Numbered from the stretch's first letter, positions 12,661 to 34,513 are shown. The stretch: 64,000 nucleotides of DNA from Verrucomicrobiota bacterium (GCA_026398275.1 JAPLTF010000032.1:62001-126000), one strand, 5' to 3'. Made by a program: numbers and translations. The notes: a model not told the origin generated them from the letters alone.

Positions 12661-12785
12661 GAGGAAGCTGTCAGGCAGCGCAACCAATATGCACTGCTTT
12701 TCCAGTCACTCACGGGGAACAAGGACCCGCAAGCTCTTGTAAAGCGGTTTACGATGATGGGATCCATAGAGAAATTTCAAATAAC

Positions 12786-12797
12786 ATAAACGTTTAT
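12786..12797. promoter_or_regulatory. LacI-type operator (perfect 12-bp palindrome)
   Basis: ATAAACGTTTAT is a perfect palindrome in the AT-rich gap upstream of the mmsA-led operon. Near-identical sites occur at 34473-34484 and 23644-23655, each just upstream of carbohydrate genes. A central CG within an AT-rich palindrome is typical of LacI-family operators. Two LacI-family genes lie in the window. Confidence 0.7.
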
Positions 12798-12867
12798 TAT
12801 ATCTTGTGCGGAAAGCTGTAAATAAAAAAATGACCCGAACCCGCAGAAGCTCGGCGCGGGAGGTTTC

Positions 12868-17968: not shown

Positions 17969-18676
17969 TTACTTCCCGAAGACCAGCGGAAGCCACTCGC
18001 TGGATTCGCAAAATGGCCCGGTCAAGGGAGCTGTGGAACTCAGTTCCAGTCCGGCGCCCGGCAGGTAAACGGAATAGTCGTAGCGAGCCAGATGAAACAT
18101 CCAGACATCCCCCTCCCGGGGTCCACCACCACTCAAGGTCGGAAGAGAGCGGAACGGGATGGCCACTTCGAGGTCCCAGCCGTCGTCCACGTCGGAGGGA
18201 TCGTTGAGGGATCCGCGGATGTTCACCCCTACGAGCAATCCTTCGCAATCCCATTTTTTCCAGCGGTGGTATCCTCCGGCAAAATCCGGTCCGGGGCTGA
18301 AGGCGTCAAAGACTGTTCCCAGCGGGTTGATTTCGAAGTTATAATACGGGGAGCGGTCCGGGTCGGTTTTGAAGAACACCTCCAGGCAATCTTCAAGGCA
18401 GGTCGGATCGTCACGCTCGGTCAAATATCCCCAGACATCCTTGTCGTCCGCGCGGAAGGCCACGTAAAGGTATTCGTCATCCCAGAGCATCCGGGCATCG
18501 GTTTTACTGACGGGTTCTTCATGGGTTTGATGAACCTGAAATTTCAATGGCCGGGCGGTTTCCCATGCCCGGTCGTTGAGAACGCCGTCAATGGTGATTC
18601 GTTCTTCGGTCCGCAGGACTCGATATGGAAGTTCCGGCTCCGGCTGCCCTGCGACCAAGGGATGTTGAGTTGTCAT
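17969..18676 (-). CDS. CBM9-like carbohydrate-binding protein
   Basis: A 235-residue single-domain protein. The start of the domain, ITIDGVLNDRAWETARP, is the classic CBM9-like opening, followed by DARMLWDDEYLYVAFRADD and, near the end, GWDLEVAIPFRSL. This jelly-roll domain binds xylan or other glycans. No signal peptide is visible from the ATG at 18676, which is odd for a glycan-binding module, so it may act in the cytoplasm or use an unrecognised export route. It is the last gene of the leftward 18-23.6 kb cluster, 186 bases after the large glycosidase-like gene; that gap shows nothing recognisable. Confidence 0.8.
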   Translation of the reverse strand: MTTQHPLVAGQPEPELPYRVLRTEERITIDGVLNDRAWETARPLKFQVHQTHEEPVSKTDARMLWDDEYLYVAFRADDKDVWGYLTERDDPTCLEDCLEVFFKTDPDRSPYYNFEINPLGTVFDAFSPGPDFAGGYHRWKKWDCEGLLVGVNIRGSLNDPSDVDDGWDLEVAIPFRSLPTLSGGGPREGDVWMFHLARYDYSVYLPGAGLELSSTAPLTGPFCESSEWLPLVFGK

Positions 18677-18862
18677 GGCATGTGTCGTAATGAGGGACCG
18701 CGGGAGGGAAGATTCCGCGCAAGGATCGCCAACTCCGCCAAAGTCTTAGAATTTGTTCTCTTCATTTTGCCAAGCAATTTTCTCTAATCCGGCGGCGAAG
18801 GAATCCGTTTCTCACCGGGTCTCCTTGCCCACACGCCACCCTTGACACCGGCTCCCGCCAGA

Positions 18863-21133
18863 TTAGGGATATTGGCTCCAGACATGGAACCGGATGACCG
18901 ATCCGCTCCGGGGCAATTCTTTGTTTCGCACGAATTCACATTGCCGGATTTTTTGTTCGACCATCACGGAGTCGTAAACCTCTCCGTAGGTGAACCCGAA
19001 ACCGATTCGCGGGTCGCTTTGCAGAATGGGCAGCGCACGGCGGGCGTTTTCGATCTCGCACCCCAGAATGCCGTCCAGATCACGGAGACAGGACTCAAAC
19101 TCCTGGGAGGACATGGGACGGCTTCCGAGGCTGTCACGGCGTTCCAAAAACCTGACGGTATTGACCAGCGAGTGCAGGTGAATGGAGATGGCCCGGCAAA
19201 TATTCAGCTCCTGGGACCTCCGAAGAGCGCCGTTTTGTCCGGCCAGAATGTCTTCCATTTCCGCGAGCCCCCGATCCCATTGGTCCCGGCAGTCGCATGC
19301 ATGGCGGAGGTAGGACTCGACTCCGAACGGGAGGCACAGCAGCAGATCGCAGACATAGCGCGGCTTGCCGGGCAGTCGGGCAAGTTTTTCATCCTTCAAC
19401 ATCTCCGCGAGATCTCCCCGGCGCAGGAAGAACTTCGGGCCAAGCTCGTAGCTGCTTTGGCTGTTGAATATGAGCGGGTGGGCGGGGCCGAGGTACCATG
19501 GCCCCCTCATGTAGGCTTCCCGTTCGCCGGCAGTCATGGCGGAATAGGGAAAGGAATCCCAGGCCTTGCTTAATGTCCGCCAGGCATCGACCAATCGGTC
19601 CGCAGCGGCGTCGGTCAATCCGAAGTCGCGCCGCGCCACAGTGCGAAGCAATTCTTCGGCGCCGCGCTCCGGATTCCAGACGGAATGGTATTGTAACTCC
19701 TCCGAAATCGAGCCGTTCATGCCGTAAAAGCGCCATTGCCCCATGAAGCCCGCGCAGCCTGCTTCCCGAATGGCCTGAAAGCGTGCGTGCCAGCGAAAAT
19801 ACACCGGCAGGCAGGGAAGAAAAAACGTATCCGGTGTGGTGTTGGTTTCCGTCTTGGCGAGGATGGGGATATTGCGGTTGCGGCACAGTTCGGCTTGCGC
19901 TGCGAAGCACGAGCTCGGGCCGGGAATCTTGATGTTGTAATCAAAGAGAACCGCCCCCGCCCCCGTGGTCGGATCGGCGTCGCCGCAGTCAAAGTTGCTT
20001 TGCACCTCGGCTCCGCCTTCCAACTCCCCGATCCAGCGGGACTCGGTGGGGTCATCTTTTGACCAGATGAATGCGCCATACGGCCACGCGATGAGCCGTT
20101 TTTCGGAACCGGCGCGCTTGACCGCAGTGGCAATGGTGCTTGCCAGTTTCGCCACATGGGAGTGGGGGTCCCTGCCCCGGCACCGCGGACAGTTGGTTCC
20201 GGATTTGTCCGGATTGGCCGGACGCATGAAGCAGTGGTGAAACCCCTCTCCACCCACCAGCATGATGCCACCGGCCAATTCGGGCACACGGCGGAAAAGA
20301 TTCTCGACCGCCTCGCCATAGGCTTTGAGAGTCAGAGGATGGCTGGCGCAGAGTACGCAGCGGTCGGCACCCGAAAGTTCCTCGAGAAAAATTTCCTCGC
20401 GCGCGCCGAGAATTTCCGGGTGATTCAAAAACACCGCATGGGTGGAGGGCAGCGCCTTGGCATTGAGAATCAGGAAGAGGTCCATGCCATGAGCCATCAG
20501 ATGATCGGCATGGCGCCGGAGATGAACCAGGGACCGGTCGAGATCCGGCGTGTTGAGCTCGGACAGGGTCTCGGAGAACCAGAGGTCGTTCAGACTCACG
20601 TTCATCTTGAGCGCGTTCGCACCGAAGTGGCGCATCAAACCGAGGTATTCGGGTGAAAAATCTCCGGGATTCTCGACGGTTTGATGTCCCGGAACAAACA
20701 CGCCTTCTGTGAAGCGGGTGACCAGGGACGGGAATTTTTCCATCAGGCCTGGAGGCAGCCACGGCCCTCCCTGATCGGCCATCCCTCGTTCCAGATAGTG
20801 CATGGCATCGGTCAAATCCCGCTCGGTTCGGCCACGAATGTGGATCCGCTCCGACCCGATGTCGGCAAGAAAACCCGACCTGCAAAGGGAGGCATCCAGC
20901 GAAAATTGCCACTCAGTCGGCGCTTCGGACCGGGAAATTCCAACGCAGGATTCCAGGAAATTTGTGAATTGTTCGCTGCCAATGGCAAAGATCCGCCCCG
21001 GCTCGAAGTCCGTGGAAATTCGGGAACCGTTTACGCGGATCCAGTCGGAAGCAGGGGCTTCAGAATCAAGCCCGGCATGGTAGCGGTAGTGATCAATCTC
21101 CAACTCTTCTCTGATCAATCCGGATCGGTTCAT
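18863..21133 (-). CDS. Putative TIM-barrel glycosidase (GH20/GH67-like architecture)
   Basis: A 756-residue protein. The N-terminal part (to about residue 130) has an IHIRGRTERDLTDAMHYLE segment typical of the small alpha/beta domain that precedes the barrel in GH20 and GH67 enzymes. It is followed by barrel-like strands (GANALKMNVSLNDLWF, DLFLILNAK, GGIMLVGGEGFHH), a CPRCRG pair of cysteines, LIAWPYGAF and a long helical C-terminus. The exact family and catalytic residues could not be fixed. No signal peptide is seen at the chosen ATG (21133), which lies 14 bases after the deacetylase stop; the frame upstream overlaps that gene. Its neighbours suggest action on an acetylated glycan. Confidence 0.68.
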   Translation of the reverse strand: MNRSGLIREELEIDHYRYHAGLDSEAPASDWIRVNGSRISTDFEPGRIFAIGSEQFTNFLESCVGISRSEAPTEWQFSLDASLCRSGFLADIGSERIHIRGRTERDLTDAMHYLERGMADQGGPWLPPGLMEKFPSLVTRFTEGVFVPGHQTVENPGDFSPEYLGLMRHFGANALKMNVSLNDLWFSETLSELNTPDLDRSLVHLRRHADHLMAHGMDLFLILNAKALPSTHAVFLNHPEILGAREEIFLEELSGADRCVLCASHPLTLKAYGEAVENLFRRVPELAGGIMLVGGEGFHHCFMRPANPDKSGTNCPRCRGRDPHSHVAKLASTIATAVKRAGSEKRLIAWPYGAFIWSKDDPTESRWIGELEGGAEVQSNFDCGDADPTTGAGAVLFDYNIKIPGPSSCFAAQAELCRNRNIPILAKTETNTTPDTFFLPCLPVYFRWHARFQAIREAGCAGFMGQWRFYGMNGSISEELQYHSVWNPERGAEELLRTVARRDFGLTDAAADRLVDAWRTLSKAWDSFPYSAMTAGEREAYMRGPWYLGPAHPLIFNSQSSYELGPKFFLRRGDLAEMLKDEKLARLPGKPRYVCDLLLCLPFGVESYLRHACDCRDQWDRGLAEMEDILAGQNGALRRSQELNICRAISIHLHSLVNTVRFLERRDSLGSRPMSSQEFESCLRDLDGILGCEIENARRALPILQSDPRIGFGFTYGEVYDSVMVEQKIRQCEFVRNKELPRSGSVIRFHVWSQYP

Positions 21134-21146
21134 TTGTGGCGGCGCT

Positions 21147-22034
21147 TCAGGTGGCGAGCGCGATTTCCGACGCGGTACAGAAGGTCGCACCGCGCTCACG
21201 CAGACCAGCCAGCAACAGATCAAATTGCTCCAGTGCGTATTGCCCGCAGTTTTTCACGATGAACGGATTCGGCAGAACCGATCCTTCTCCGAAATGGATC
21301 AGTCCCTCCGGCATCGGATGGAACTCCCACGGGTGAAAATAAAAAGAAAGGACTCTGCGACGAACTCCTCGGACCTTGAGAAAGCCCAGATACTCATCAA
21401 TATGGCGCAGCAACGCGACGGCTGATTCCGTGCGGAATTTCGGCCACTGGTCCCGGTCGCGTCCGAACTCATCGGAACTTTCCATGGCGAGATTTGCGAA
21501 ATTGGGAATCTGAACCAGGCGCATGGTTCCCGGCTTTGTCCAATCCTCCGGCGACGGATGGTAGGGCTCCAGCCGGTTACGGTAATAATACATCGGGTAG
21601 GATGCATCGCTAAGGTAATTCAGTTCCTCCAGCGCGAGGCACACGGCTGTGGAACCGAACAAACGGGGACTGCGGAAACTTACAGGACGCACCCCGCAGA
21701 TTTCTTCGATCCATCGTGTGTTCTGTTCCAACCTGGGAAAAACTTCCGAGGGCAACAGGGGGTGGATGCCCGGAATGGGAAAGAGAGGGTCGCCGATGGT
21801 CTCGTGATAAAGACTGTGGGTGCCGACTTCGTGCCCGGCGTCCCGCACGCTGAGCACACTCTCAGGAACTTCCCGGGCGGAGTGTCCGACGAAGTAAAAT
21901 GTGCCCTTCGCACTGTGCTTGGCGAAGACCTCCAGAATTCCGGGGGTGGCATGGCGCAGCCCTTCATGGAAAGGCGTCCAAGAACCGACATCGGTTTCCA
22001 TGTCGAAACCAAGCAAAACTTCGAGCGAGGCCAT
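21147..22034 (-). CDS. Polysaccharide deacetylase (NodB-like)
   Basis: A 295-residue NodB-homology enzyme. The catalytic Asp lies in GFDMETD, the metal-binding pair in HEVGTHSLYHE (HxxxH), and the conserved FRSPRLFG follows. Near the C-terminus SFYFHPWEF supplies the last conserved His. Family enzymes remove N- or O-acetyl groups from chitooligosaccharides, peptidoglycan or xylan, or act as allantoinase-like amidases. No signal peptide is seen, so a soluble intracellular substrate is likely. The gene lies 10 bases after the ASRT-family gene and 14 before the large glycosidase-like gene. Confidence 0.86.
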   Translation of the reverse strand: MASLEVLLGFDMETDVGSWTPFHEGLRHATPGILEVFAKHSAKGTFYFVGHSAREVPESVLSVRDAGHEVGTHSLYHETIGDPLFPIPGIHPLLPSEVFPRLEQNTRWIEEICGVRPVSFRSPRLFGSTAVCLALEELNYLSDASYPMYYYRNRLEPYHPSPEDWTKPGTMRLVQIPNFANLAMESSDEFGRDRDQWPKFRTESAVALLRHIDEYLGFLKVRGVRRRVLSFYFHPWEFHPMPEGLIHFGEGSVLPNPFIVKNCGQYALEQFDLLLAGLRERGATFCTASEIALAT

Positions 22035-22044
22035 GATCGTATGT

Positions 22045-22428
22045 TCAGGCAGGATGCCCCATCACAGTGTAATAAGCGAGATTCGGCTGGCGGATGTCCA
22101 TGCGCCCGAGTTGGGCCACCACCGGATGGCTGCTTTCCAGCACGAGGGAGTATTGCACTTGAGGTATCTGGCGATTCTCCGCTCCGAGCGGTTCGTTCGT
22201 GCGATGGCATACGACCCTCCGCGCACCAAGTTCCGGCAGCTCGATCTGCCATGGCTCCTGGTCGGTGAAGAAAACAGACAACCTGAGCCTGGCCGGTTCG
22301 TCTCCGGTGTTCAGGATGACCAGCGATTCATGGCCGTGCGTTCCTTCGTTTTTAAGCGAGAGGTCGTAAGGATCCCGGGGCGGGATGTCCCCATCGGGAA
22401 AAATCCAGACTTTGGAACCGGTTTTCAC
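22045..22428 (-). CDS. ASRT-superfamily small-molecule-binding protein
   Basis: A 127-residue protein matching the Anabaena sensory rhodopsin transducer (ASRT) superfamily: KVWIFPDGDIPP at the start, then HESLVILNTGDEPARLRLSVFF, RVVCHRTNEPLG and a late SLVLESSHPVVAQLGRMD. The family folds as a beta sandwich and has been proposed to bind small molecules, probably sugars, mostly outside rhodopsin contexts. The start codon is GTG and overlaps the upstream M24-like stop by 4 bases (GTGA), so translation is coupled. Its place between a dead M24-like protein and a polysaccharide deacetylase supports a carbohydrate-related role. Confidence 0.8.
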   Translation of the reverse strand: MKTGSKVWIFPDGDIPPRDPYDLSLKNEGTHGHESLVILNTGDEPARLRLSVFFTDQEPWQIELPELGARRVVCHRTNEPLGAENRQIPQVQYSLVLESSHPVVAQLGRMDIRQPNLAYYTVMGHPA

Positions 22429-23636
22429 AGCCCCGCCTCCACCACCCGATCAAGTTCCGGACTGAGCCACTCGGCAGGGCCGTTTTCGGAAATTCGCACA
22501 CCATTTTCCCAGCGCAGGCCAAAGACCGAACCGTTTTTCCTGGCCAGCTCGCTGCCTTCCGGCGCATAGAAATAGGTGTCGACCTGGAAGGTCATTCCCG
22601 GTTGTAACGCATAGGTGCTGGTCGACTCGATCCACGGCCGCTCGACCTCGATCATGCCCAACCCATGGCAGGGACCGTAAAGCTGATAGCCGGCGTAGCC
22701 CTCGGCCCGCACAAATTCATCATACCGCCGGGCAACCTCGCCCGCCGAGACTCCCGCGACCAATAAAGTGCGTGTAAAATGGTGGGCTTTCAATCCGAAC
22801 TCAAGCAACTCGCGCTGCGCCTCCGAAGCCCGTCCCAAAACCACCGGCACCCCGATGCTTGGCGAATACCCGTGGACGCGGGCGCTGAGATTGAGTTGCA
22901 CGATATCTCCGCTTTGGATCTGCCGGTATCCGGCCCGACCGATGGCGTGCGCGCTGGACTCTCCCGAGAGAACATATTGCGGCAGCCCCTCGTATTCGGC
23001 CCCCTCCGCGTAGATCACATTCTGCGCGATTCCAGCAATCTGCAACTCCGTCAATCCGGGCCGCATTTTGGAAATCACCTCATCAGTCGCCTTTCTTGTA
23101 ATGCCAAAAGCAGCTTTCAAACAGGCAATCTCCGCCTCCGACTTGATCATTCGCTGCGAAAATAGCGCGTCGTCGGCCTTGACCAATTCAGCGGACGGGA
23201 ACGCCTCCCGAAGAGCATGATAAACGGGCAGCGGAAACACCGCCCATCCGGCCAGCCCGATGGTCTTCGGGGATTTCACGCCGAAGGACTCAAACAAAGA
23301 AACGAAGGTTTCCACCGCGATTCCCGGATAATCCGGCTCGGCGGATTCGCGGTATTCCACCATTTTGCGAACATCGGGAAGTTTCGTTCGGTTGCGGGCA
23401 AAGGTCTCGCTCTCCGGGCCGATGAGCAACGCGGCGCGCCCGTCCGGCAATACCAAAACTCCCGCAGATTCAAACAGCGGCCAGTAATCGGACAAGTATC
23501 GTACATTGGCGAAGTCGGCTTCGTTGGAGTGCACGATCAGGGCGTCAAGACCCATGGCTCGGGCCTTCCCGGCCGTGGCCTCGAGACGCTGTGAAAACTC
23601 GGAATCAGGGATGTGTGTTGGAGATTTGGAAATCAT
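22425..23636 (-). CDS. M24 (creatinase/aminopeptidase) fold protein lacking metal ligands
   Basis: About 403 residues with the two-part plan of creatinase/Xaa-Pro dipeptidases: N-terminal creatinase domain and C-terminal pita-bread domain (HAIGRAGYRQIQSGDIVQLNLS, CHGLGMIEVERP, LQPGMTFQVDTYF). In metallopeptidases the strand after GD carries Asp, and a second Asp follows GY.x; here they read Asn (QLN) and Ser (GYSPS). It is thus unlikely to bind two metals and may instead resemble metal-free creatinase-type hydrolases; the CHG His is retained. The ATG at 23636 was chosen. An operator lies 8 bases upstream. First gene of the leftward cluster. Confidence 0.82.
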   Translation of the reverse strand: MISKSPTHIPDSEFSQRLEATAGKARAMGLDALIVHSNEADFANVRYLSDYWPLFESAGVLVLPDGRAALLIGPESETFARNRTKLPDVRKMVEYRESAEPDYPGIAVETFVSLFESFGVKSPKTIGLAGWAVFPLPVYHALREAFPSAELVKADDALFSQRMIKSEAEIACLKAAFGITRKATDEVISKMRPGLTELQIAGIAQNVIYAEGAEYEGLPQYVLSGESSAHAIGRAGYRQIQSGDIVQLNLSARVHGYSPSIGVPVVLGRASEAQRELLEFGLKAHHFTRTLLVAGVSAGEVARRYDEFVRAEGYAGYQLYGPCHGLGMIEVERPWIESTSTYALQPGMTFQVDTYFYAPEGSELARKNGSVFGLRWENGVRISENGPAEWLSPELDRVVEAGL

Positions 23637-23643
23637 AAACGAT

Positions 23644-23655
23644 ATAAACATTTAT
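23644..23655. promoter_or_regulatory. LacI-type operator (one central mismatch)
   Basis: ATAAACATTTAT differs from the 12786-12797 palindrome at a single central base. A further ATAAACGATAT half-site begins at about 23635, so the pair overlaps the ribosome-binding region of the M24-like gene. The LacI regulator at 23829-24842 lies directly upstream in the same direction and is the natural candidate ligand. Confidence 0.62.
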
Positions 23656-23700
23656 ACTTTTCCTTGGTGCGGCTGATCGGTCAAGAATTAAATAAGAAAA

Positions 23701-23828: not shown

Positions 23829-24842
23829 TCAGCTTTTGGAGCAGGACGGAAGCGCGGAATCGCCTCTTACAAGGCACCCTGCTATTCGGATTTCGAGCGG
23901 CTGGGGAGCCTTGGGATCGCGAATTTTATCAAGAAGGAGGCGGACACCCTCGCGGGCAAGCGCCTCAATATCCTGCTCGACGCGGCAGAGCGAGGGATGC
24001 CAAATTTCGCAGAGGGGAAGGCTGTCAAAGCATGCGAAACCGACCTCGAGGCCGGGTCTCAGCGCCAAATCCCTCATGGCCTGAAGAGCCCCCATGGCAA
24101 GCGGCTGCGTCAGGCAAAGAAGAGAGCGCCCCTCCAGCCGGGGCAGAAGTTTGGCAGCGACCAGTTTTGCGGCTCCGATTTCATTGGATGACACATGGCG
24201 CTTGACTCGCGATTTGAAAACCTGGGCTACTCCCGCCTCCCGTTCACCGATACTCCGGTCGCCACAGTCCGAAGTCAGCACGGCAACTTCCCGCACCCCC
24301 ATCGAGGCAAGTTCCACCGCAAGTTCGCGGCTTGCGGCACGGTTGTCAGTGATCACAGCGGGGAAACGGTTGCTGCAGCCCGGACGATCTAAGATAACGA
24401 GGGGAAAATCCCCGCCAACGCCGAAATCTTCGGGGCTGAGTTTGTCCGAATAAGGAATCCAAAGCAGACCGTCCACACCTCTTCCCAAGACATTTTTCAG
24501 GAGATGCATCTCCTTGTCCGGATCCGTGGTGGAATGCCCGACAAGGGTCTCGAAGCCGTTTTCACGAAGCGTGCCGACAATACATTCGACCAGAGTTCCC
24601 GTGAAAAAGGGGATTCCGCTTGGTACAACCAACCCAGCGGTCATGCTGCGCTTGGTGCGGAGGGAACGGGCGTGAGTGTTCGGGATGTAACCTCTTTTTT
24701 TCGCAAGCGCTTCCACTCTCCGAACCGTCGCCGGCGCATAGGAAAAACCGTCGAAGGATTTGTTCAGGACCTTCGAAACTGTACAGATCGAAAGACCCAA
24801 TTCCTCGGCCAAGCTGGTAAGCGTTACTTTTGGTTTTTGCAC
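23829..24842 (-). CDS. LacI-family transcriptional regulator
   Basis: A 337-residue regulator. The N-terminal HTH reads VTLTSLAEELGLSICTVSKVLN, followed by the hinge-type GYIPNTHARSLRTKRS and then a periplasmic-binding-protein-like ligand domain (GLVVPSGIPFF, GVDGLLWIPYS, PLVILDRPG, DNRAASRELA). It most likely controls the downstream cluster through the operator pair at 23635-23655, and perhaps the other two operator copies in the window. The effector is presumably a sugar released by that cluster. Between it and the cluster lies an IS-end remnant. Confidence 0.92.
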   Translation of the reverse strand: MQKPKVTLTSLAEELGLSICTVSKVLNKSFDGFSYAPATVRRVEALAKKRGYIPNTHARSLRTKRSMTAGLVVPSGIPFFTGTLVECIVGTLRENGFETLVGHSTTDPDKEMHLLKNVLGRGVDGLLWIPYSDKLSPEDFGVGGDFPLVILDRPGCSNRFPAVITDNRAASRELAVELASMGVREVAVLTSDCGDRSIGEREAGVAQVFKSRVKRHVSSNEIGAAKLVAAKLLPRLEGRSLLCLTQPLAMGALQAMRDLALRPGLEVGFACFDSLPLCEIWHPSLCRVEQDIEALAREGVRLLLDKIRDPKAPQPLEIRIAGCLVRGDSALPSCSKS

Positions 24843-24898: not shown

Positions 24899-25870
24899 TC
24901 AGTGACTTCGCTTGACGCTCTTCCACTTTTCGAACTCCGCCAGCAGTTCCTCGCGCGAACAGCGAGGGCGCAGGACAGTGCGGACGCGAAAACTGTATTC
25001 CTTCATCACCTCCGGCTTCTCGATCAGGAACTGGAAATCCCACGCCGGATTCGTCGTTTGCAACGCTGAGATCGCTCCGCCGCCGCTGGGCGAGTGGGTG
25101 AAGCGGATGCCTTCCGCGCGGTCAAACATCACCAGCCACACCAAATCGTCGAAGTTGCCGTAGTAGAATGGCTGGTCAAAGCGGAAGCGGGACAGGCTCT
25201 TGAACAGTGTGTCACGGCCGCCTGGTGCAAACGTCATCTCGAACGTGTCATCACGATGGCGCACGGTGCTCTGGTCGTTGTGCCATTGCGTACAGAATTG
25301 CGTCCAGTGGTTCTTCTGCCCATCGAGGCCACCAAGGAAATACATGCTCTTGTCCGCCGGCGCGTTGATGTAGCTGGCCCAGAACAGCGCTAGGTAGCCC
25401 CGAGTGAACAAGTGCTCGTGCGCCACGCAGCGGAAGCTCATGTCTAGGTAATGCGGCGCGGCCAACCGGAAGCGCGTCCAACTCTCGATGTGAAAGGTCG
25501 GCGTCGGTGGTTGGCAAAGTTCCACCTCGCTTTCACTGAGTTGCTTAAAGCTCATCGGCGCGTTGCGCGGCTCGAAGAACAGCTTGCTGTCGCCGTCGAG
25601 GTGCTCGCCCGTGACGATGTGTTCCAGGTTCAGCCCTGCCAGGGCCGGCACGAACACACTGCGCGTCCCCGCCGCATGATGCAGGCTCCATACGCCGTTG
25701 TAGCCGGCGCAATGTTCGCCCTCGGCCGAGTTGTCGCCGACGACGGCGGTAAGGTCGCCGGCCCTGAGTGTTGCGTGGCCCGGTGTGCTGTCAGGCGTTG
25801 CAGCGCGCAGGCTGGCGGGCAATACGCCTGCCATAGCCGCCGGAGCGCTGAGAAATGTTCTTCGGTTCAT
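24899..25870 (-). CDS. Tat-exported protein of unknown function
   Basis: A 323-residue protein starting MNRRTFLSAPAAMAGVLPASLRAA. The twin-arginine RRTFL plus a hydrophobic, Ala-rich h-region and an AxA-like cleavage site indicate Tat export. The mature part is beta-rich and Trp/His-rich (HNDQSTVRHRDDTFEM, YGNFDDLVWLVMFDRAEG, IRFTHSPSGGGAIS), without a family I recognise. Similar stand-alone proteins occur in Planctomycetota and Verrucomicrobiota. It lies 56 bases upstream of the LacI gene and 87 bases beyond the IS91-like transposase, so its original neighbours may have been displaced. Confidence 0.7.
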   Translation of the reverse strand: MNRRTFLSAPAAMAGVLPASLRAATPDSTPGHATLRAGDLTAVVGDNSAEGEHCAGYNGVWSLHHAAGTRSVFVPALAGLNLEHIVTGEHLDGDSKLFFEPRNAPMSFKQLSESEVELCQPPTPTFHIESWTRFRLAAPHYLDMSFRCVAHEHLFTRGYLALFWASYINAPADKSMYFLGGLDGQKNHWTQFCTQWHNDQSTVRHRDDTFEMTFAPGGRDTLFKSLSRFRFDQPFYYGNFDDLVWLVMFDRAEGIRFTHSPSGGGAISALQTTNPAWDFQFLIEKPEVMKEYSFRVRTVLRPRCSREELLAEFEKWKSVKRSH

Positions 25871-25957: not shown

Positions 25958-26992
25958 TTATTTTAACGCCCAGACGCTGACGGATCGGGCCTTGAGAGTC
26001 AATCGCCAGGCTTTCTTGATGAGTTCGCGCCACTTCTTGGACGGGATCCGCCGGGAATTGGACTCGGAGACCTCGCCCTCGGGCACGTCCACAGGTTCGG
26101 CATCCGCCCGTTTGAGACGCTGGCCCCTCATCTTGTTGGAATACCATCCGTAGTAGCGGACGAGTTGGAAGCTCTTGTCCGGGATGTGCTGGGTGATGCG
26201 GGCGATAAAGTCGCACGGGCTGAACACTTCGAAGTTGCGCGAGATCTTCGGGTTCATCCCCGAGCGGTAAATGATCGAGTCCCCGGAGCTGTTGGGCTGC
26301 ATTTTTTCGACCGAGAACGGGTTGCGGATGATGTATTGGGCGAGACGCTCCATGTCCTCGCGGTTACGGGGCGGCACGCGCTCGCTGCGGTGGATGTTGA
26401 ACCCGGAGTGCATCCATCCGCGCAGCATCCGGGCACGCTCGGGCGGCAGGAGCCCCTTTTTGACCAGAAATGTGATGACCCGTGCGCGGAAGAGTTCCTC
26501 CAGCGGAGCGAGGCTGGCCTCGGGCATCACATGGAAGAGCCCGTCGGCCGCGAGCGCGTGAAGCTGCGGGTGGAAGTCGAGGTATTCACCGAAGGTGTGG
26601 ATGGCCATGACGAGGCCGGTCGTGCCCTCGGGCAGACCGAGCGCAGTGCGCTGGAACTCGGCCAGGCAGCGGTGGGCGATGCGGCAGAGTTCCTTGATGA
26701 GCCCGCGATGAAATCGGAAATACGGGCGCAGCATCTTGGGGATATTCAACGTCAAGTGCCGGTGCGGCACGGGCGCCAGGACGGCATCCGTCAGCAACGC
26801 ACCGAAGAGCTGCACCTTTTTCTGGTGGCAAGACGGGCAGAACCAGCGGCCCTTGCAAGAGAACGCCAGCAAGTACTCGTGCTTGCAGTGGTCGCAGCGC
26901 ACCCGCGCGAAACCGTTGGCGAAATCCCCGCAACCCATGAACTTGCCGACCACCTCCGGGATGATCGGGCGCAGGAACCCGAAATCCTCCAT
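25958..26992 (-). mobile_element. IS91-family transposase, 5'-truncated
   Basis: The frame encodes 344 residues of a Y2/HUH-type IS91-family transposase. The zinc-binding domain is visible (RVRCDHCKHEYLLAFSCKGR.FCPSCHQKK), followed by VPHRHLTLNIPKMLR, the HPQLHALAADGLF metal-binding His pair, and RYYGWYSN near the C-terminus with the catalytic Tyr region. Complete members have about 45 more residues before FGFLRP; here the frame instead hits the MFS stop codon, in the same frame, 10 codons upstream of the first Met. The element therefore lost its 5' end at the junction with the transporter gene and is probably inactive. Confidence 0.85.
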
Positions 26993-27019: not shown

Positions 27020-28978
27020 CTACGGTATTGCCATTGGTTCTGCGTCGACTTGCACGGAGAACCCGCGTTCAATCCGGCATATCAACTGCACACTGGCGAT
27101 CAGGATGACATCCGTTATCACATTGGCTGCCGTAAAGACGATCGCTCCCGATTCCATGTTCAGGTTGACGGCAACCACCACCTGACAGATCCATATGCCC
27201 GAGGCCAGCAGGAACTTGATCGCGGTAATAATCAACACGCCATGATGAGGAATCCCGTTGTGCAGCGGTTCGTTGTTGCGCGCCCTGGCGATGTCCCGGC
27301 GAATTCCCTTCTCGACAATCATCCAGTAGACCCATGCGATCAGGGACAGCGGCAGCAGCAGGCAGGCATGCCACGTCAGTGCGACCATGGCGTGCTTATG
27401 GTACATCCAGCACATCAGGAAAGGGATGCCGAATACCGACAGGTACATGATCGCGTTGAACAGCTTCAGCGTTACATCCAGCCAGCGCGACTGCGGACCG
27501 ACCGTCGGCACGATGGGCATCTCCTCGATTCCTTTCGGATCCCACGGCGCGGGAGGATGGAAATGTGCATCTCCTCCAAGCCGATACCATTCGCGGTATG
27601 CCATGATGATCAAGATTGTGTATATGACGGCTCCCACGCTGAACCACAGGAAGATGAAACGATAGGCAAAGTCGGAACCGTGGCAGAGGTACTTCATGAG
27701 GTCGATGAAAAGACCTGCAAGCATGCCGGCTCCTATGGCCACAAATGTGCTGAGCATCGACATGGCAGAACAGAACTGTCCAAACCTGGACTGGGGGAAA
27801 ACCCTCATGTAGAAGGGCATGAAGCACCCCCCCAGCAATGCCGCCTGGAATACCGAGATCAACCCGCCGCCAAGACTTAGCCAGAAGAAGAAATTGGCAG
27901 GGACCGTCACAAAAAGCCAGACAAGCGACATGGAATACCCGAGGAATGCAAACACGCAGGAGTATGCCAATACCCGCAGAGGATGCCAGCGGTCTATGAA
28001 GATCGCGGCAAGATACATCGCCAGCAACCCTGCAATACCACCAATGGCGCCAAGCTTGCCGATTTGTGCAAGGGACAACCCCATATCTTTGAAGAAGAAG
28101 ACCGTGAACGTCCCCATGGAACTGGTCCCGGCATTCTGAAAGATCGTGAACAGGAAGATAATCCAGTAGAACTTGTTGGTGAAACACTCCTTGAAGAAGA
28201 CTCTCAATCCTCCTATCTGTTTGTTGTCCTCCCCGGTTTCGGCTTTGAACGGCGGATATTCCCCCTCTCTCACCATAAAGCACATGATCCCGAAGCCGAG
28301 GAAATAGAGCATTGCCGCGCCGGTGAAGATCTCCCGCATATTGGTTTCCGCATACTGGAAGGCGAAATAGCTGTACAAGGCGCCGGCTCCTGTGCCGACA
28401 ATCCGGAAAACTCCCAGGAAGCGGGCAATGAACTGCGGCGGAACGACATCGTTGAACAGATACCAGAAGACGGAATTGACGAACGCGTTGAAAAACTGGA
28501 ACACGGCAAGGAAAAGCGCAATCACCGCAATCGTTAGAGTGGTGGGGGCGAATTGCCTTAGGAAAGTCGAATGCGCATGCAAGAAGCCGGAGATGCTGTC
28601 ACTCCAGCCCAACAACGCCAAACTCACGCAGAGGAACGGCAATGTCCAGATGATGAAGGGAATGCGCCTTCCCCATTTGCTGCGGTGACGGTCGCTCTTG
28701 AAACTGACCCAGGGCCCCACGACAATGCCCAGAATCCCGGGGATGGTGGTCATGATCATCCCCATAAGCCAGTTGGGACACCCCAGCGCGTTCAGCTTTA
28801 GAGGGACAAGGCTCGGCACCACCGCTTGCATCATCGTGTAGCAGAAGTCGCCCCAGAGCAGCCATGCGAAGAGCGCGGCAAGTCCAGCCTTAGTATAGGT
28901 CAACGTTCCGCAACGATAGGTGGTGCCGCCGGGGCCAACGGGTGTCTTATCCGATGCAATAGGCTGGTTTGTATTCAT
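27020..28978 (-). CDS. MFS sugar transporter (GPH/SLC45-like)
   Basis: About 652 residues with at least twelve hydrophobic segments. The segment between TM2 and TM3 reads SFKSDRHRSKWGRRIPFI, the family's D..SK.GRR/K pattern, and TM1 is LAALFAWLLWGDFCYTMM. Length exceeds a standard MFS protein because of an extra C-terminal membrane region (about residues 500-640). Such proteins import sugars or oligosaccharides by cation symport. The ATG at 28978 starts a hydrophilic N-terminus; an upstream in-frame start at 29002 is possible. It heads away from the sugar isomerase gene (286-base gap). Its 3' end abuts the truncated IS91 transposase. Confidence 0.87.
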   Translation of the reverse strand: MNTNQPIASDKTPVGPGGTTYRCGTLTYTKAGLAALFAWLLWGDFCYTMMQAVVPSLVPLKLNALGCPNWLMGMIMTTIPGILGIVVGPWVSFKSDRHRSKWGRRIPFIIWTLPFLCVSLALLGWSDSISGFLHAHSTFLRQFAPTTLTIAVIALFLAVFQFFNAFVNSVFWYLFNDVVPPQFIARFLGVFRIVGTGAGALYSYFAFQYAETNMREIFTGAAMLYFLGFGIMCFMVREGEYPPFKAETGEDNKQIGGLRVFFKECFTNKFYWIIFLFTIFQNAGTSSMGTFTVFFFKDMGLSLAQIGKLGAIGGIAGLLAMYLAAIFIDRWHPLRVLAYSCVFAFLGYSMSLVWLFVTVPANFFFWLSLGGGLISVFQAALLGGCFMPFYMRVFPQSRFGQFCSAMSMLSTFVAIGAGMLAGLFIDLMKYLCHGSDFAYRFIFLWFSVGAVIYTILIIMAYREWYRLGGDAHFHPPAPWDPKGIEEMPIVPTVGPQSRWLDVTLKLFNAIMYLSVFGIPFLMCWMYHKHAMVALTWHACLLLPLSLIAWVYWMIVEKGIRRDIARARNNEPLHNGIPHHGVLIITAIKFLLASGIWICQVVVAVNLNMESGAIVFTAANVITDVILIASVQLICRIERGFSVQVDAEPMAIP

Positions 28979-29264
28979 TAATGAGAATGGCTGTCGCGTC
29001 ATTGTTGACCATGATCGCGAAAGCAGGTGCAGTGGAGCGCGGGTCAGTCGTCCAACGGTGTTGGCCTCCCGCAGAGGACGATGTCACGGGGTTAACCTCT
29101 ACAATCACACTCATGGCCATATTTTATCGGCCTCCCTGCCATTAAACACCCGCGTTTCAACTGCGACCCAAAGATTATTTGTCCCCTGAGCATTCCGGAT
29201 CTGAGACTCCAAAAATCTGCAGCGTCCGTTGCTTCTTTTTCGCACTATGTGAACAGCATTGCGC

Positions 29265-34421: not shown

Positions 34422-34472
34422 GCTGGAAATTCTCACCTCTCAATATAGATCTTGATCTCGCATCGGAAAAGT

Positions 34473-34484
34473 GTAAACGTTTAT
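34473..34484. promoter_or_regulatory. LacI-type operator in divergent promoter region
   Basis: GTAAACGTTTAT contains the perfect core palindrome TAAACGTTTA shared with 12786-12797. It lies between the divergent lactonase (start 34421 or 34436) and Ldh_2 dehydrogenase (start near 34514) and could repress both. Confidence 0.68.
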
Positions 34485-34513
34485 TTTATGAAATCCACTC
34501 TCCTCGCGCTGCT

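What the first reader, a model, noticed from the sequence alone, without database searches (positions are those of the whole stretch)
17969..23655. ASRT-family protein coupled to a metal-free M24 protein in a deacetylase/glycosidase operon
The gene order is M24-like, ASRT, polysaccharide deacetylase, TIM-barrel glycosidase, CBM9. The first two overlap by GTGA. The M24-like protein lacks the paired Asp metal ligands, and ASRT proteins are thought to bind small molecules. All members lack signal peptides, even CBM9. This looks like an uncharacterised intracellular system for one acetylated sugar derivative.
Basis: partly seen in the sequence, partly recalled or inferred. Interest (0 to 1): 0.6.

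Follow-up and report, generated by a model that had tools for sequence, protein, structure and literature searches.

The report
Metal-free M24 module with interchangeable hydrolases
In this operon and in about 90 related loci from several bacterial phyla, an uncharacterised metal-free cousin of peptidases usually sits next to one of three unrelated metal-dependent hydrolases, often with a small ligand-binding protein, which points to an undescribed intracellular pathway for breaking down a nitrogen-containing, probably sugar-derived, molecule.

Summary
An operon on the minus strand encodes an M24-like protein, ASRT, a NodB-type deacetylase, a GH84/GH20/GH67-like TIM-barrel protein and CBM9, behind a LacI gene and a LacI-type operator. 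The M24-like protein belongs to a discrete family found in Verrucomicrobiota, Armatimonadota, Omnitrophota, Oscillospiraceae and Spirochaetes. In 94 members the second metal-site Asp is never Asp, the first is Asp in only 3, and the catalytic His of prolidases is always Ile.

The slot next to M24 is filled by NodB (41 loci), a creatininase-family protein (21) or an Amidohydro_2 protein (9, plus two where it accompanies a creatininase). NodB and creatininase share a locus only twice. ASRT accompanies all three types. Partner type changed at least 8 times on the M24 tree. In 388 Verrucomicrobiota genomes M24 and "NodB or creatininase" occur together (55/62 against 6/326 genomes).

Best reading: a two-enzyme intracellular hydrolysis module for a sugar-associated C-N compound. 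It resembles creatininase→creatinase and the ectoine pair EutD (M24)→EutE (deacetylase). Substrate and reaction are inferred. ASRT's sugar-operon context is already known; I found no report of the module.

The parts
22425..23651 (-). M24-like (pita-bread) protein lacking the paired Asp metal ligands; the first ATG (23651) overlaps the operator, so translation probably starts at ATG 23636
   Evidence: Pfam PF00557/PF01321; family alignment; metal-site counts in 94 members; AlphaFold model pLDDT 92 with prolidase/creatinase/DoeA fold, Z 38-39
22045..22428 (-). ASRT (ASRAH-domain) protein; keeps His but has Val in place of the Cys of the proposed ligand site
   Evidence: PF07100 E=1e-25; TM1070 and Anabaena ASRT by sequence; all 25 M24-linked copies lack the Cys
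21147..22034 (-). NodB/CE4-fold hydrolase with metal triad residues kept (D11, H73, H77) and no obvious signal peptide; one of three alternative partner hydrolases
   Evidence: PF01522; alignment A3; PDB profile search
18863..21133 (-). apparently cytosolic TIM-barrel glycosidase-like protein; GH84/GH20/GH67-like fold; conserved Cys motif
   Evidence: PF02838 (GH20b) in 5 of 11 relatives, not in the window protein itself; fold search Z about 18-20 to Cwp19, GH84, GH20, GH67; model pLDDT 75
17969..18676 (-). CBM9-like protein without obvious signal peptide; loosely conserved partner
   Evidence: PF06452 E=3e-9; present in 10 of 94 loci
23829..24842 (-). LacI-family regulator upstream of the operon
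   Evidence: PF13377 and NCBIfam LacI-type models; LacI near M24 in 25 of 94 loci
23643..23656 (.). LacI-type operator TATAAATGTTTATA at the operon start
   Evidence: palindrome shared upstream of M24 in window, L018, L019 and, more weakly, L020; 5 matches to the motif in the window against 0.21 expected

Best explanation
The core is an intracellular hydrolysis module: a metal-free M24 (creatinase-fold) enzyme, one metal-dependent amide/lactam-type hydrolase and, in about a quarter of the loci, an ASRT ligand-binding protein, often inside a sugar-utilisation operon. Proposed mechanism: (1) a sugar-linked or sugar-derived compound is taken up and trimmed (LacI control, TIM-barrel glycosidase); (2) the metallohydrolase (NodB here, creatininase-family or Amidohydro_2 elsewhere) hydrolyses one C-N bond, perhaps in a cyclic amide; (3) the M24 protein hydrolyses a second C-N bond without a binuclear metal centre, or the two act in the opposite order as in EutD then EutE; (4) ASRT binds a substrate or intermediate and senses or buffers it. 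Shown: conserved module, loss of the metal pair, interchange of three unrelated hydrolase folds, genome-level co-occurrence. Inferred: the reactions, their order, the substrate and the ASRT ligand.
For: The M24 family is discrete: 32 loci at 45-78% identity, then a gap to 27%. In 94 loci the neighbour within 4.5 kb is NodB 41, creatininase 21, Amidohydro_2 11 (9 without another partner), NodB+creatininase 2 (Fisher 3e-4, not corrected for phylogeny). 53 of the 69 loci with a partner have it within 250 bases on the same strand. Partner type changes at least 8 times, including inside fully supported clades such as L141 against L149/L151 and L032 against L025/L028/L035. Genome profile: M24 with NodB or creatininase in 55/62 genomes against 6/326 without M24 (p=7e-52). 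All three partners keep their metal-ligand residues, while M24 has lost its pair. ASRT occurs with all three types and directly abuts M24 plus Amidohydro_2 in L183/L184. A ureidoglycolate-lyase homologue lies near the creatininase in 5 Oscillospiraceae loci. Precedents: EutD (M24) and EutE deacetylase work as a pair (PMC8739950); NodB-fold PuuE hydrolyses a small cyclic imide (PMC3084791); creatininase then creatinase (general knowledge).
Against: No substrate or activity is known. H192, kept in prolidase and in DoeA, is Ile in every member, so known M24 chemistry may not apply. NodB and creatininase co-occur at L132 and L134, and 6 genomes have both, so replacement is not strict. 25 loci have no partner within 4.5 kb; several are cut by contig ends and others encode the partner elsewhere. 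Amidohydro_2 also contains sugar lactonases, so the shared bond need not be C-N. The retained H324, D353 and E377 (numbering of alignment A1, from Met 23636) could hold one metal.
Confidence: 0.45

Rival explanations
1. Sugar lactone/ester pathway: the partner (NodB, creatininase-like or Amidohydro_2) is a lactonase or de-O-acylase in an oxidative sugar pathway, and M24 acts on a sugar acid or lactone.
For: Sugar dehydrogenases (ADH, Gfo/Idh), a FAH-type enzyme, FGGY kinases, DUF6786/DUF4432 and glycosidases occur near M24. The Amidohydro_2 family includes L-fucono-1,5-lactonase (NCBIfam name; a different Amidohydro_2 protein in the window resembles that model below its cut-off).
Against: Creatininase-family and NodB-fold enzymes with known function mostly cleave C-N bonds (general knowledge). 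A ureidoglycolate-lyase homologue in five loci points to ureido/amide chemistry.
Confidence: 0.2
2. One reading: an acetylated sugar derivative is deacetylated by NodB after glycosidase trimming, and M24 cleaves an amide or amidine of the same sugar.
For: NodB is the commonest partner (41/94 loci) and keeps the metal triad; the TIM protein resembles GH84/GH20 hexosaminidases.
Against: NodB is swapped for a creatininase-like or Amidohydro_2 protein in equivalent loci, neither of which is a typical deacetylase.
Confidence: 0.15
3. M24 is a pseudoenzyme: it and ASRT form a ligand-binding or regulatory pair for the adjacent metallohydrolase.
For: Metal pair and the H192 equivalent are lost in all or nearly all 94 members; Spt16, a non-peptidase pita-bread protein, also aligns (Z 31); ASRT is a predicted sensor (PMC2739507).
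Against: About 75 alignment columns are invariant across phyla, including segments at the active site (HAIxR, GYS, GPxHGxGxIEVExPW, MTFQVDT, RWE), more than a scaffold would seem to need; creatinase and DoeA show that metal-free M24s can be catalytic.
Confidence: 0.15
4. Incidental clustering in sugar islands or a widely transferred cassette without functional coupling.
For: Patchy distribution (5 of 213 genomes in the order) suggests horizontal transfer; an IS91-type transposase lies nearby.
Against: Same-strand placement in 68 of 69 loci with a partner, conservation across phyla, and genome-level co-occurrence p=7e-52.
Confidence: 0.05

Closest known systems
Creatininase plus creatinase (M24) creatinine degradation
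   Same: A creatininase-family metalloenzyme next to a metal-free M24 protein with creatinase fold (Z 39); Asn at the first lost metal Asp, as I recall for creatinase
   Different: M24 is about 20% identical to creatinase and has Ile at the prolidase-equivalent catalytic His; creatininase is replaceable by NodB or Amidohydro_2; ASRT and sugar genes are present
EutD/DoeA (M24 ectoine hydrolase) plus EutE/DoeB deacetylase
   Same: A metal-free M24 hydrolase paired with an adjacent deacetylase in one catabolic operon (PMC8739950); same fold (Z 37.9)
   Different: M24 scores 53 bits against the ectoine-hydrolase cut-off of 575; the deacetylase is NodB-fold; the regulator is LacI, not MocR/GabR-type EnuR
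ASRT/ASRAH family 1 (TM1070, Anabaena ASRT)
   Same: PF07100 over the full length, conserved HE...N motif, stand-alone intracellular form in sugar operons
   Different: All 25 M24-linked copies lack the Cys of the proposed ligand site, while the unlinked copies L014 and L015 keep it; I saw no mention of linkage to M24 in the parts of the 2009 paper that I read
NodB/CE4 deacetylases and PuuE allantoinase
   Same: NodB fold by sequence, Asp/His/His metal triad kept
   Different: No obvious signal peptide; aligns with solved deacetylases over the N-terminal half only; unlike PuuE it keeps the metal triad (PMC10967932)
GH84/GH20/GH67 glycosidases
   Same: TIM barrel plus GH20b-like N-domain and helical C-domain, Z about 18-20
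   Different: About 10% identity, no family HMM match for the window protein; conserved Cys cluster; apparently cytosolic

Membership tests
M24 (pita-bread) superfamily | M24 fold and profile match | tested here: met
   PF00557 111 bits against cut-off 23; prolidase/creatinase fold Z 39
M24 metallopeptidase (prolidase, aminopeptidase P) | Five ligands Asp-Asp-His-Glu-Glu for the binuclear metal centre | tested here: not met
   Second Asp absent in 94/94, first Asp present in only 3/94, first Glu is Asp in 94/94
M24 metallopeptidase (prolidase, aminopeptidase P) | Catalytic His equivalent to H192 of 1pv9 | tested here: not met
   Ile in 94/94
Ectoine hydrolase DoeA/EutD | NCBIfam score cut-off (575 / 613 bits) | tested here: not met
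   53 and 34 bits
Creatinase (creatine amidinohydrolase) | Overall fold | tested here: met
   1chm Z 39.2, rmsd 2.2, 21% identity over 368 residues; tied with prolidases
Creatinase (creatine amidinohydrolase) | Catalytic His232 | tested here: inconclusive
   The prolidase-equivalent position is Ile in 94/94; no residue alignment to a creatinase sequence was obtained
Creatinase (creatine amidinohydrolase) | Hydrolysis of creatine to sarcosine and urea | not testable with these tools
   needs an enzyme assay
ASRT / ASRAH family 1 | PF07100 match over the domain | tested here: met
   90 bits against cut-off 25, profile 2-119 of 119
ASRT / ASRAH family 1 | SHEshChhN signature with His and Cys lining the pocket ('nearly absolutely conserved' in PMC2739507) | tested here: not met
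   His and Asn kept, Cys replaced in all 25 linked copies; so filed as a PF07100 relative and not as a canonical family-1 member
NodB / carbohydrate esterase 4 | PF01522 match and Asp-His-His metal triad | tested here: met
   56 bits against 23; D11, H73, H77 invariant
PuuE allantoinase | Metal-independent NodB fold (Asp pair and second His lost) | tested here: not met
   Asp and both His invariant; PuuE features from PMC10967932
Creatininase family (partner in other loci) | PF02633 match and metal-ligand residues | tested here: met
   L025 protein 91 bits against 31; E/H/D and ETS motifs align with 1q3k
GH84/GH20/GH67 | Family-specific profile match | tested here: inconclusive
   GH20b domain in 5 of 11 relatives but not in the window protein; fold match only

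The most novel reading that the evidence does not exclude
An undescribed, widely transferred catabolic pathway for a sugar-linked cyclic amide, ureide or amidine. A third kind of metal-free M24 enzyme, with neither the prolidase metal pair nor the shared catalytic His, works with any of three unrelated metallohydrolase folds that do the same job, and a Cys-less ASRT protein is the dedicated sensor or carrier of the intermediate.
Probability: 0.35. Interest if true: 0.75.

Novelty: new variant of a known kind. Interest (0 to 1): 0.58.

Why it matters
ASRT proteins have had predicted but, as far as I know, unproven sugar-sensor roles since 2009, and metal-free M24 enzymes are known from very few pathways. 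This module ties both to a defined hydrolase slot. Because three unrelated folds fill that slot, the candidate chemistry is narrowed to what all three can do, which makes the ASRT ligand question directly testable. It also warns against annotating these proteins as peptidases, polysaccharide deacetylases or rhodopsin transducers.

Tried and rejected
Strict mutual exclusion of NodB and creatininase looked perfect in the first 34 loci but failed in the larger sample (L132, L134), so I claim strong but not absolute alternation.

An early idea that NodB equals PuuE-type allantoinase was dropped because the metal triad is intact. Canonical prolidase was rejected on ligands. Ectoine hydrolase was rejected on NCBIfam scores.

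The LacI operator was sought upstream of all M24 genes; it is clear only in the window's clade, so it is not a family-wide feature. A look for a fourth hydrolase in the loci without a partner found a protein with a signal-like N-terminus (c18), a sugar-isomerase-like protein and unrelated genes.

I could not obtain a residue alignment to a solved creatinase (it ranks too low to be printed), so creatinase residues are quoted from general knowledge. Three searches centred on other phyla failed because they needed a genome handle that I did not have, so genome-level statistics cover Verrucomicrobiota only. Literature searches for creatininase plus creatinase or deacetylase clusters and for ASRT operons found no description of this module; subscription journals are mostly not held.

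Full report
Observation. The window carries, on the minus strand, LacI (24842-23829), M24-like (23651 or 23636 to 22425), ASRT (22428-22045), NodB (22034-21147), a 756-aa TIM-barrel protein (21133-18863) and CBM9 (18676-17969). The M24/ASRT junction is a four-base GTGA overlap. A palindrome TATAAATGTTTATA lies across the first ATG of the M24 gene. It is shared with the nearest relatives L018, L019 and, more weakly, L020, and the motif is enriched in the window (5 matches, 0.21 expected). It looks like the operator of the LacI regulator, so M24 probably starts at the second ATG, 23636.

Metal site. Aligned with P. furiosus prolidase 1pv9, the two Asp ligands are Asn and Ser. Over 94 family members the first is Asn in most and Asp in only 3, the second is never Asp, His284 and Glu327 are invariant, Glu313 is always Asp and His192 is always Ile. 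The predicted structure (pLDDT 92) matches prolidases, creatinases and the ectoine hydrolase DoeA about equally well (Z 38-39). A mononuclear site built from the retained His, Asp and Glu is not excluded. The family therefore belongs to the M24 fold but fails the metallopeptidase test, and it scores far below the ectoine-hydrolase cut-offs.

A discrete, widespread family. A genome scan with the M24 protein returned 32 loci at 45-78% identity and then nothing above 27%. Record titles place them in Chthoniobacterales and other Verrucomicrobiota, Armatimonadota, Omnitrophota, WS1, Zipacnadia, Oscillospiraceae and Spirochaetes. A search of 388 Verrucomicrobiota genomes found one or two copies in 62 of them.

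Conserved neighbourhood and the interchange. Profiles of each operon member were run over the neighbourhoods. The first 34 loci with an M24 carried NodB or creatininase or neither, never both. The creatininase identity rests on Pfam PF02633 and on alignment with solved creatininase including metal-ligand motifs. In the extended set, a divergent M24 subgroup (L179-L187) carries an Amidohydro_2 protein instead. Tallies over 94 loci: NodB 41, creatininase 21, both 2 (9.2 expected, Fisher p=3e-4 without correction for relatedness), Amidohydro_2 11, of which 9 have no other partner. On the M24 tree the partner changes at least 8 times, including within fully supported clades. ASRT is linked in 25 loci, with all three partner types, and abuts M24 plus Amidohydro_2 in L183 and L184.

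Genome-level co-occurrence. Of 62 Verrucomicrobiota genomes with the M24, 46 encode this NodB and 26 this creatininase. Among 326 genomes without it the numbers are 5 and 1; M24 against either gives p=7e-52. Several genomes whose M24 locus lacks a partner encode one elsewhere, for example G247, G253, G280 and G399. Six genomes have both (at the stricter creatininase threshold), so alternation is strong but not absolute.

Partner enzymes look intact. NodB keeps Asp11, His73 and His77, creatininase-like proteins keep the E/H/D and ETS motifs, and Amidohydro_2 proteins keep the HxH, His, His and Asp motifs by eye. The metal chemistry thus sits in the partner, not in M24.

ASRT. The protein matches PF07100 over its full length and is closest in sequence to TM1070 among solved structures. 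De Souza, Iyer and Aravind (PMC2739507) proposed sugar sensing and named His and Cys of a SHEshChhN motif as pocket residues. All 25 M24-linked copies keep His but have Val, Ile, Leu or Met in place of Cys, while two unlinked copies from the same order (L014, L015) keep Cys. The linked copies thus look like a distinct subgroup, perhaps with a different ligand.

Sugar context. The TIM protein has a GH20b-type N-domain in 5 of 11 relatives. Its model (pLDDT 75) matches Cwp19, GH84, GH20 and GH67 enzymes at Z 18-20. Other neighbours include LacI (25 loci), DUF6786 (17), CBM9 (10), Gfo/Idh (11), FGGY kinases, alcohol dehydrogenases, GH29, GH130, a FAH-type protein and ABC or SSF transporters. In five Oscillospiraceae loci a ureidoglycolate-lyase homologue lies downstream of the creatininase gene.

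Interpretation. Two known pathways pair a metal-free M24 enzyme with a second hydrolase: creatininase then creatinase (general knowledge), and EutD then EutE deacetylase for ectoine (PMC8739950). NodB-fold enzymes can hydrolyse small cyclic imides (PuuE; PMC3084791). I therefore infer two successive hydrolyses of a small, probably sugar-linked C-N compound, with ASRT binding a substrate or intermediate. The module, the metal loss and the interchange are shown; reactions, order and substrate are inferred. The strongest alternatives are a lactone pathway and a non-catalytic M24.

Limits. Genes were called by a simple composition score and homology, not by a trained gene finder. Many loci are contig fragments of metagenome assemblies. 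Counts are not corrected for phylogeny except by the tree. The genome profile covers one phylum. Creatinase residues were not aligned here.

Noticed in passing
window 12785-12798 and 12687-6078: A second operator-like site (CATAAACGTTTATT) lies 98 bases upstream of a minus-strand operon encoding a methylmalonate-semialdehyde dehydrogenase-like protein, an IlvE-type aminotransferase, a phosphotriesterase-family protein, an acetolactate-synthase-like TPP enzyme and a GH4 glycosidase; it may share a LacI regulator with the M24 operon.
   Followed up: partly
window 34472-34485 and 34436-33531, LacI-like ORF at 33265-32231: An Amidohydro_2 protein resembling L-fucono-1,5-lactonase, with an apparent LacI-type regulator nearby and a similar operator-like site.
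   Followed up: partly
window 25958-26992: IS91-type (Y2_Tnp with zinc-binding domain) transposase gene between the LacI side of the operon and an MFS transporter gene at 27020-29002.
   Followed up: no
window 24899-25870: 323-aa protein with a twin-arginine-like N-terminus (MNRRTFLSAPAAMAG) and no Pfam match, directly upstream of the LacI gene.
   Followed up: no
L014 10521-10886 and L015 14168-14533: ASRT copies not linked to M24 keep the canonical Cys motif and share a different conserved neighbourhood (clusters c8, c24, c25, c26).
   Followed up: partly
94 M24 loci: DUF6786 (17 loci) and ASRT (25 loci) never occur in the same M24 locus (4.5 expected, p=0.005, uncorrected for phylogeny); they might be alternative sugar-binding modules.
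   Followed up: no
L039, L043, L044, L046, L048: Ureidoglycolate-lyase (PF04115) homologue downstream of the creatininase gene, followed in L043/L044 by a sodium:solute symporter (PF00474) and an Amidohydro_2 protein.
   Followed up: partly
TIM protein, window 18863-21133: Nearly invariant Cys residues (C262, C301, C315, C318) and His300 beside the conserved Glu296 suggest a metal site unusual for GH84/GH20-like enzymes.
   Followed up: no
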